From Bacteroidales bacterium (GTDB taxonomy: Bacteria; Bacteroidota; Bacteroidia; Bacteroidales; UBA932), in assembly GCA_028691975.1 (NCBI GenBank), contig JAQUYF010000003.1:1-64000 (forward strand): DNA of 64,000 nt. Direction: 5' to 3'. The position numbers and the translations under genes are program-made. Within the stretch, counting starts at the first letter, position 1. Each line of letters begins with the position of its first letter. Below the pieces are notes generated by a model. That model saw nothing but the letters and a program-made list of their open reading frames with translations, was not told where the DNA came from and made no database searches. Positions 60,714-64,000 of this stretch are shown piece after piece.

Positions 60714-60831
60714 ATTGCAAAAATATACAGATTTGCAACCTTGTGCAATAGAAAATGTATGTTGGAGATTGTGACTTGTTCGATTTTGGCAGTTCCTGAC
60801 GATGAGCGTATTGGATAGATCTGCTGACTTC

Positions 60832-60904
60832 GGACATAGGGATTGACTTGTATAATAACAAACTGTGGAACATGGCTTTACATAAAGTGCCAATCCCTAT
60901 GTCC
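60832..60904. repeat. Inverted repeat element A
   Basis: ggacatagggattg (60832-60845) / caatccctatgtcc (60891-60904), 14 bp perfect. Confidence 0.9.
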
Positions 60905-60967
60905 AAATACCGATATTTTGCATAGTGCCTTTAGAGCAGGTATAACGTCGATTCTGATTATTGGCGT

Positions 60968-61046
60968 CATGGAGATAGGGATTAACTTTTCGTGTAAAAT
61001 GTTGATAAATAAGATATTGCGCTCATGACTAATCCCTATCTCCATG
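60968..61046. repeat. Inverted repeat element B, related to element A
   Basis: catggagatagggatta (60968-60984) / taatccctatctccatg (61030-61046), 17 bp perfect. Confidence 0.92.
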
Positions 61047-61204
61047 AAAATGGCACATTCAGCCACGTCCGTGTGTTCTTATGCCAAACATTGTTTTGAA
61101 ACCTGTGTTGATAGAATTGTCCACCGTGCAGTGAGAATTGAATTTCAAGGAGATACACTACGTAAACAATATTGATATATCTTTGCGCTAACAAAAAAAA
61201 TTGT

Positions 61205-61681
61205 CTAACAAGGTGGCCGACTATCGACTGGAATACGTAAACTCGATAAAGTAATAAAGATTTGCGCGATTTCCTCTTTCGTGAACCCAAATAATTTACA
61301 TATTGATAATTCATTGTCATTTACTGTTATATTATGAGAAATAGAAGCGTTATTATGGAATGATGTCAATAGCGTTTCTTTTTGAGAATATGATAATTTC
61401 GGTAACGGAAGGTTCATTATATATTGGCTTAACCATCTAAGACCGCTATCTCCGAGAGAAATGGAATAAAACAGTCTAAAGCAATATTCAATTACCCTCG
61501 AATTAAGCATATGAATGATGTACTCTATATCGTTTCCTGTAATCAAATAACCAGTATTTGAAACGAAGTACTCACCTTCTTCATCCAGCGCAAAAGAACT
61601 ACCTTGAGATAATTCTTGATATACTATTTTTGGCTTATCAAATTCCTCCATATTATTAGAAATATATGCGTATTTACGCAA
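61205..61681 (-). pseudogene. C-terminal fragment of an Eco57I/TaqI-type restriction-modification enzyme (target-recognition domain)
   Basis: MEEFDKPKIVYQELSQGSSFALDEEGEYFVSNTGYLITGND..YIIHMLNSRVIEYCFRLFYSISLGDSGLRWLSQYIMNLPLPKL; no methylase domain present. Confidence 0.75.
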
Positions 61682-61755
61682 TTATTCCCAATAATATAGT
61701 TGCTTTTCTGTTATTTATCATATCTTTGCAGTCGAATAATATGCGTATTTACGCA
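61667..61755. promoter_or_regulatory. Duplicated palindromic operator TGCGTATTTACGCA flanking a TATCTTTG promoter
   Basis: Palindrome at 61667-61680 and 61742-61755 within larger mutually inverted attagaaatat... arms; tatctttg at 61721-61728. Confidence 0.7.
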
Positions 61756-61779
61756 AATATTTCTAATTAAAAACCAAAT

Positions 61780-63571: not shown

Positions 63572-64000
63572 ATGGGACAAGAACTAAATATAAATCAAGG
63601 TATTTCGTTTGAGCAGCTGGCTCAGAATATTATCATCATTGATAATTCTCTGCGTGATATGGCTGTCAAAGCAATTAATAGAGCGGCCACTTTACGAAAT
63701 TGGATTATCGGCGGATATATTGTCGAATATGAGCAAAACGGCAGCGATAGAGCAAAATATGGAGACGGCCTATTGAAGAAACTTGAAGAAAGAATAGCTC
63801 AAAAGGGAATGTCAGTAACGTCGTTTCAATATTCTCGTTTATTCTATCGTTCTTATCCACAAATGATTAGCCTTATCACCTCAAATTATGCGACATTGCC
63901 GCATAATTTGCCTATCGCAGAGAATTATGCAACAGTGTCGCATAATTCTAATGAATATATGACTTCGGCTGAAACAGTGGTTTCTCATTTATCGTTCTCA
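63572..64000 (+). CDS. DUF1016 (YhcG-like) PDDEXK nuclease, N-terminal part, truncated by window end
   Basis: Own translation: MGQELNINQGISFEQLAQNIIIIDNSLRDMAVKAINRAATLRNWIIGGYIVEYEQNGSDRAKYGDGLLKKLEERIAQKGMSVTSFQYSRLFYRSYPQ; no stop before 64000. Confidence 0.85.
   Translation, partial: MGQELNINQGISFEQLAQNIIIIDNSLRDMAVKAINRAATLRNWIIGGYIVEYEQNGSDRAKYGDGLLKKLEERIAQKGMSVTSFQYSRLFYRSYPQMISLITSNYATLPHNLPIAENYATVSHNSNEYMTSAETVVSHLSFS

What the first reader, a model, noticed from the sequence alone, without database searches (positions are those of the whole stretch)
60832..61046. Two adjacent inverted repeats with compensatory differences
Element A arms ggacatagggattg/caatccctatgtcc and element B arms catggagatagggatta/taatccctatctccatg are paralogous (gga[c/g]atagggatt[g/a]actt on the left). 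Both differences are matched on the opposite arm, so pairing is preserved. Spacers (~45 nt each) are unrelated. This pattern argues for selection or a mechanism acting on the hairpin: mobile palindromic element, recombinase site or structured RNA. It marks the boundary of the accessory region.
Basis: seen in the sequence. Interest (0 to 1): 0.7.

Follow-up and report, generated by a model that had tools for sequence, protein, structure and literature searches.

The report
Paired transposase-linked DNA hairpin repeats
The two hairpin-forming repeats are one pair from a scattered family of short DNA elements in a Bacteroidales-type bacterium, of a kind that in related bacteria sits on both sides of a single-strand DNA transposase gene, so they are most likely small passenger elements spread around the genome by such an enzyme.

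Summary
In detail: elements A (60829-60907) and B (60967-61047) have the stated arms, 45-nt spacers and matched differences. One claim fails: the spacers are not unrelated. Both are centred on the same mirror motif (GTAA-N4-TTG-N5-CAA-N4-TTAC), and A and B are the only places in 64 kb with stem plus centre.

At least 12 copies lie in the genome, always in pairs, several inside mosaics of related hairpins. None of 39 congeners has one. Another genus of the family has dispersed pairs with the same frame and centre but other stems; all 14 outer-stem pairs show compensated changes.

The same double hairpins flank genes of one clade of RAYT-like (HuH/Y1, REP-associated) transposases: 10 hits in 22 kb at six such loci against 2 in 292 kb of controls, and 17 of 20 further loci of the clade (36 hits, 0.4 expected), mostly pairs about 83 bp apart.

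So A and B are most likely a non-autonomous REP/REPIN-like double hairpin mobilised in trans by a RAYT. The RAYT of this particular family was not found (assembly 87% complete), and movement itself is inferred. A new variant of a known kind.

The parts
60829..60907 (+). Element A: whole palindromic hairpin unit (perfect core of the stem 60832-60845 / 60891-60904)
   Evidence: Inverted repeat I3; covariance model R1 84.2 bits on + (56.6 on -), E 4e-16; aligns with ten other copies
60832..60845 (+). Element A left stem arm GGACATAGGGATTG
60855..60881 (+). Element A mirror core (GTAA-N4-TTG-N5-CAA-N4-TTAC, 11 of 14 positions matched, centre 60868)
60891..60904 (+). Element A right stem arm CAATCCCTATGTCC
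60967..61047 (-). Element B: whole palindromic hairpin unit, better model score in the orientation opposite to A
   Evidence: Inverted repeat I2; covariance model R1 73.9 bits on - (57.0 on +)
60967..60984 (+). Element B left stem arm TCATGGAGATAGGGATTA
60994..61020 (+). Element B mirror core (12 of 14 positions matched, centre 61007)
61030..61047 (+). Element B right stem arm TAATCCCTATCTCCATGA
60908..60966 (.). Linker between the two hairpins (centre-to-centre 139 bp here, 107 bp in the other own pairs, about 83 bp at the RAYT genes of related genomes)

Best explanation
A and B are the two halves of one non-autonomous double-hairpin element of the REP/REPIN kind. Each half is a palindrome of about 75 nt: a 13-18 bp outer stem whose sequence is family-specific, a 9x9 internal loop, then a conserved mirror core (GTAA, 4x4 loop, TTG, 5-nt loop, CAA, TTAC). 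SHOWN: the anatomy, its dispersal in pairs, the compensated stem changes between families, and the specific occurrence of such pairs beside, often on both sides of, genes of one clade of RAYT-like HuH/Y1 transposases in Bacteroidales. INFERRED: when the DNA is single-stranded (for example on the lagging strand at replication) the hairpins form, a RAYT recognises core plus cognate stem, cuts and rejoins, and the pair is copied or moved to other intergenic sites; stem and RAYT co-diverge, so each species has its own stems. In this genome the family is probably orphaned, or its RAYT lies in the unassembled 13%.
For: At least 12 copies in the own genome, always in pairs, 0 of 39 congeners. Same frame and core with different, base-paired stems in another genus of the family; 84% of cells paired against 30-47% when slid on 15 units; on 32 units 81% against 29-50%, 118 double changes against 49 in shuffles, all 14 outer-stem pairs compensated. 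RAYT gene of G414 flanked on both sides. Signature fixed beforehand: 10 hits in 21.9 kb at six clade loci, 1 in 66 kb unrelated loci, 1 in 85 kb other RAYT loci of that genus, 0 in 103 kb own-genus RAYT loci, 0 in 38 kb own RAYT loci (Fisher p about 1.6e-10). Replication on 20 new clade loci from named Bacteroidales MAGs: 17 with hits, 36 hits against 0.4 expected, mostly pairs 82-85 bp apart. Gene-flanking stem also found elsewhere in the same genome: GGACCTTCCATC (G262), GGTCTGCGGA (G401). Catalytic HuH and Tyr invariant in the clade; NCBIfam RAYT model E=3e-5.
Against: No RAYT of that clade was found in the own assembly, and none of the five own RAYT loci carries the signature. No empty site could be shown, because congeners are too distant. 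NCBIfam RAYT scores are below the curated cut-off, and Pfam gives no hit for the clade protein. A-B spacing (139 bp) and opposite orientation differ from the other own pairs (107 bp, direct). The relatives were found with models that include the structure, so pair counts lean towards it.
Confidence: 0.82

Rival explanations
1. Structured RNA: the hairpins act in transcripts (mRNA 3'-end stabiliser, terminator or small RNA), and stem pairing is kept by selection on the RNA.
For: Compensated stem changes and intergenic position. REPs are known to be transcribed and to have secondary RNA roles (PMC3733652).
Against: No Rfam match; the specific link to RAYT genes with family-specific stems is not explained; not in 39 congeners; both strands fit the model almost equally in A and B.
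Confidence: 0.06
2. A MITE with terminal inverted repeats moved by an ordinary double-strand (DDE) transposase, or remnants of an insertion sequence.
For: Short inverted repeats around a fixed-length interior, dispersed copies.
Against: The conserved part is the centre and the ends vary with pairing kept, the opposite of TIR recognition; direct tandem pairs and mosaics; linkage to HuH/Y1 genes. Target duplications could not be tested without empty sites.
Confidence: 0.06
3. A protein-binding double-strand site (operator, nucleoid-protein site or recombinase site) made of mirrored half-sites.
For: Mirror symmetry of the core and its fixed spacing.
Against: The outer stem changes freely while pairing is kept, which fits a single-strand hairpin better than a double-strand site; located at RAYT genes rather than at integrases or a fixed regulon; absent from congeners.
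Confidence: 0.04

Closest known systems
REP / REPIN (BIME) elements with their RAYT (TnpA-REP) transposases, REPtrons (PMC6006769, PMC3116915, PMC3733652)
   Same: Short intergenic palindromes in pairs and clusters, species-specific, same repeats flanking a single-copy HuH/Y1 gene and dispersed in the genome, several families and RAYTs per genome, mosaics of repeat types.
   Different: Each palindrome is about 75 nt with a 45-nt interior carrying a mirror core, instead of a 20-40 nt hairpin; no GTAG/GTGG foot; the paired unit is two long hairpins about 83-107 bp apart; the RAYTs are about 295-350 aa with a long C-terminal part.
TnpAY1 subclass 2.6 of Bacteroidetes with 'atypical secondary structures' (PMC6006769)
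   Same: Bacteroidetes; gene flanked by non-GTAG structures with copies elsewhere in the genome; NH[LIV]H and Y-x-x-x-N-P type motifs similar.
   Different: Subclass 2.6 median length is 179 aa and its Y motif YIH[QN]NP; the clade here is about 295 aa with YxxRN. The paper's structures were not available for comparison.
TIRYT / TIRtrons (PMC3733652)
   Same: RAYT-like genes flanked by longer inverted repeats that form moderately abundant families, many in dimers.
   Different: No fixed mirror core is described in the text read; described mainly from other phyla.

Membership tests
REP/REPIN-like elements (broad sense) | Short palindromes dispersed in several intergenic copies, often as pairs or clusters | tested here: met
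   12 copies in pairs; mosaics
REP/REPIN-like elements (broad sense) | Same class of palindrome flanks a RAYT gene (REPtron) | tested here: met
   Met for the class in related genomes; for the own stem family no RAYT was found
REP/REPIN-like elements (broad sense) | Gene-flanking repeat family also dispersed elsewhere in the same genome | tested here: met
   G262 GGACCTTCCATC at C71 and C9; G401 GGTCTGCGGA at C65 and C59
REP/REPIN-like elements (broad sense) | Mobilised by the RAYT | not testable with these tools
   No strain collection of the species, no experiment
Canonical GTAG REP | GT[AG]G tetranucleotide at the foot of the hairpin | tested here: not met
   No conserved bases 5' of the stem in 32 aligned units
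Canonical GTAG REP | 20-40 nt hairpin with short loop | tested here: not met
   About 75 nt with 45-nt interior
RAYT protein family (the linked genes) | HuH motif and single catalytic Tyr | tested here: met
   H63-L-H65 and Y122 invariant in six clade proteins; H-I-H and Tyr invariant in the five own RAYTs
RAYT protein family (the linked genes) | Score over the NCBIfam NF047646 cut-off (80 bits) | tested here: not met
   23.9 bits, E=3.2e-5; own C8 44.5 bits, E=1.4e-11: related, not equivalog
TnpAY1 subclass 2.6 | Subclass profile, about 179 aa, YIH[QN]NP | tested here: inconclusive
   Length about 295 aa, YxxRN; published profiles not held
Known Rfam RNA | Match to any of 4227 families | tested here: not met

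The most novel reading that the evidence does not exclude
A distinct class of transposase-linked double hairpin in which a fixed mirror core and a freely varying but base-paired stem are read together: a two-part recognition code (core for the clade, stem for the individual enzyme) without the GTAG guide, letting many RAYTs coexist in one lineage, each with its private hairpin population.
Probability: 0.4. Interest if true: 0.6.

Novelty: new variant of a known kind. Interest (0 to 1): 0.5.

Why it matters
It gives a concrete, testable form to RAYT-linked 'atypical' structures reported from Bacteroidetes: stem, core and pair spacing are defined, and dozens of natural enzyme/hairpin pairs with different stems are at hand, so RAYT specificity and co-divergence can be tested by swapping stems. 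It also cautions that matched changes in the two arms of a repeat need not mean an RNA.

Tried and rejected
Rfam at gathering and lax thresholds: nothing meaningful. Exact stem pattern in the GTDB and IMG/VR collections: 0 matches, the own genome being possibly left out there. Empty site through the neighbouring C92 gene: best congener 37% identical, no synteny shown. Own C8 RAYT as partner: its flanking repeats have CAATTCTTTATGTG-type arms resembling the second own subfamily (GACATAAAGAATG), but the profile search gave only E=3.5; left open. Own C37 RAYT as partner: contigs C101 and C37 share exactly 127 identical end bases, which suggests adjacency in the assembly graph and would put a RAYT about 1 kb from two copies, but the repeats next to that gene are a different short hairpin and it lies outside the linked clade; left open. 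Integron attC: set aside because the arm orientation is opposite to the attC core motifs (own knowledge). R2 model on 30 RAYT loci of the own genome and genus: no match, so the link holds for one clade, not for RAYTs in general. Structure prediction was not attempted because proteins from these loci are not on the tool's list of allowed inputs.

Full report
Check of the observation. A and B are in the sequence as described: arms of 17 and 18 nt around 45-nt spacers. No shuffled window had exact inverted repeats with 13-nt arms at that distance. The statement that the spacers are unrelated is wrong in an informative way: both are centred on GTAA-N4-TTG-N5-CAA-N4-TTAC, and a scan for stem plus centre finds only A and B in 64 kb.

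Copies in the own genome. The stem pattern with up to 3 mismatches gives ten sites and none for the reversed control; a covariance model gives twelve. They come in pairs: C9 (A and B), C27 twice, C51, C91 and C101. Spacing within pairs is about 107 bp in direct orientation, except C9 with 139 bp and opposite orientation (strand scores). At C27 (both), C91 and C101 the pair lies beside arrays of a second, diverged hairpin subfamily with GACATAAAGAATG arms, which also occurs on C28 and C93. No match was found in 39 congeners.

The same anatomy elsewhere. Among 399 genomes of the family, two of another genus gave weak hits. Both turned out to be pairs in the same 83-column frame, with different but base-paired stems and the same core. 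A model of both groups found matches in 10 of 41 genomes of that genus, multi-copy in two. On 32 units the structure pairs in 81% of cells against 29-50% when slid, with 118 double changes against 49 in shuffles, and all 14 outer-stem pairs show compensated changes. Most of those units were found with a model that includes the structure, so this count leans towards it; the stems at the G262 and G401 RAYT genes were also found by a plain inverted-repeat search.

Link to a transposase clade. One of the hits (G414) lies about 150 bp from a RAYT-like gene that has hits on both sides. Relatives of that protein were fetched. A signature taken from the own copies and the first two relatives was then counted: 10 hits in 21.9 kb at six loci of the clade, 1 in 66 kb of unrelated loci, 1 in 85 kb of other RAYT loci of that genus, none in 103 kb of own-genus RAYT loci and none in 38 kb at the own RAYT loci (Fisher p about 1.6e-10, treating positions as independent). 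The G414 locus was found through a model hit and is not independent. The replication is: twenty new clade loci from named Bacteroidales MAGs, mostly from ruminants, gave 17 loci with hits, 36 hits, 0.4 expected from shuffles, mostly in pairs 82-85 bp apart and in several loci on both sides of the gene. Other Y1 loci gave 13 hits in 214 kb, 9 of them at more distant Bacteroidales relatives with yet another stem. In G262 and G401 the stem that flanks the gene also occurs elsewhere in the genome; one G401 copy (contig C7) is probably next to the RAYT contig, as 99 end bases are shared, but the C59 pair is not known to be.

The proteins. The HuH motif and the tyrosine are invariant in the clade. 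The NCBIfam RAYT model matches at E=3e-5 for the clade protein and at 1.4e-11 for an own-genome RAYT, both below the curated cut-off. A tree puts the clade next to a group that holds the own C37 and C86 RAYTs, joint support 98/98. RAYT-like genes are common in the own genus (31 of 40 genomes), and their flanks are rich in inverted repeats of other designs.

Mechanism. Shown: anatomy, dispersal, compensated stems, linkage to a RAYT clade. Inferred from the biology of TnpA-REP (PMC6006769 and works cited there): single-strand hairpin recognition, cutting and rejoining, spread in trans. Not shown: mobility itself, the partner of this particular stem family, any effect on the neighbouring genes. 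Matched arm changes are expected for a DNA hairpin under such recognition, or through hairpin-templated correction, and do not require an RNA.

Relation to known systems. It works like a REP/REPIN with its RAYT. It is not a canonical GTAG REP, since that feature and the hairpin size were tested and not met. Atypical structures beside Bacteroidetes Y1 genes have been reported (subclass 2.6, PMC6006769), so the kind is known; the double hairpin with a fixed mirror core, variable stem and regular pairing is, as far as the open-access papers read here show, a new variant.

Noticed in passing
61655-61680 and 61742-61767: 26-nt inverted repeat (88%) with TGCGTATTTACGCA cores, 61 nt apart, between the TaqI_C-domain ORF and the AAA_14 ATPase gene; looks like a divergent promoter/operator region.
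   Followed up: no
63884-63949: Two short near-identical palindromes (AATTATGCGACATTGCCGCATAATT). They lie inside an open reading frame of 374 aa that starts just after the HTH gene, so they are an in-frame coding repeat rather than a regulatory hairpin.
   Followed up: partly
61205-61681 (-): 158-aa ORF matching only a TaqI-like C-terminal specificity domain (PF12950), probably a fragment of a larger restriction-modification gene.
   Followed up: no
L038, L039, L040, L041 (own genome contigs C8, C6, C90, C37): Four of five RAYT-like genes of the own genome are each flanked by their own, different tandem repeat arrays (periods 302/172/130, about 127, 168 and 52 bp); RAYT-like genes occur in 31 of 40 genomes of the genus, up to 10 per genome.
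   Followed up: partly
L036, L034, L032, L035, L176, L177 (own contigs C27, C91, C101, C28, C93): Mosaic arrays of a second hairpin subfamily (arms GACATAAAGAATG/CATTCTTTATGTC, about 148-bp period) and a third palindrome (GACGAGAATGTCCTTT/AAAGGACATTCTCGTC) beside the type described here.
   Followed up: partly
L206-L210: More distant Bacteroidales Y1 relatives (24-27% identity) carry paired hairpins of similar frame with GAGCGTGAGGCG stems and a TTCATTATCAA centre, a possible sister class.
   Followed up: no
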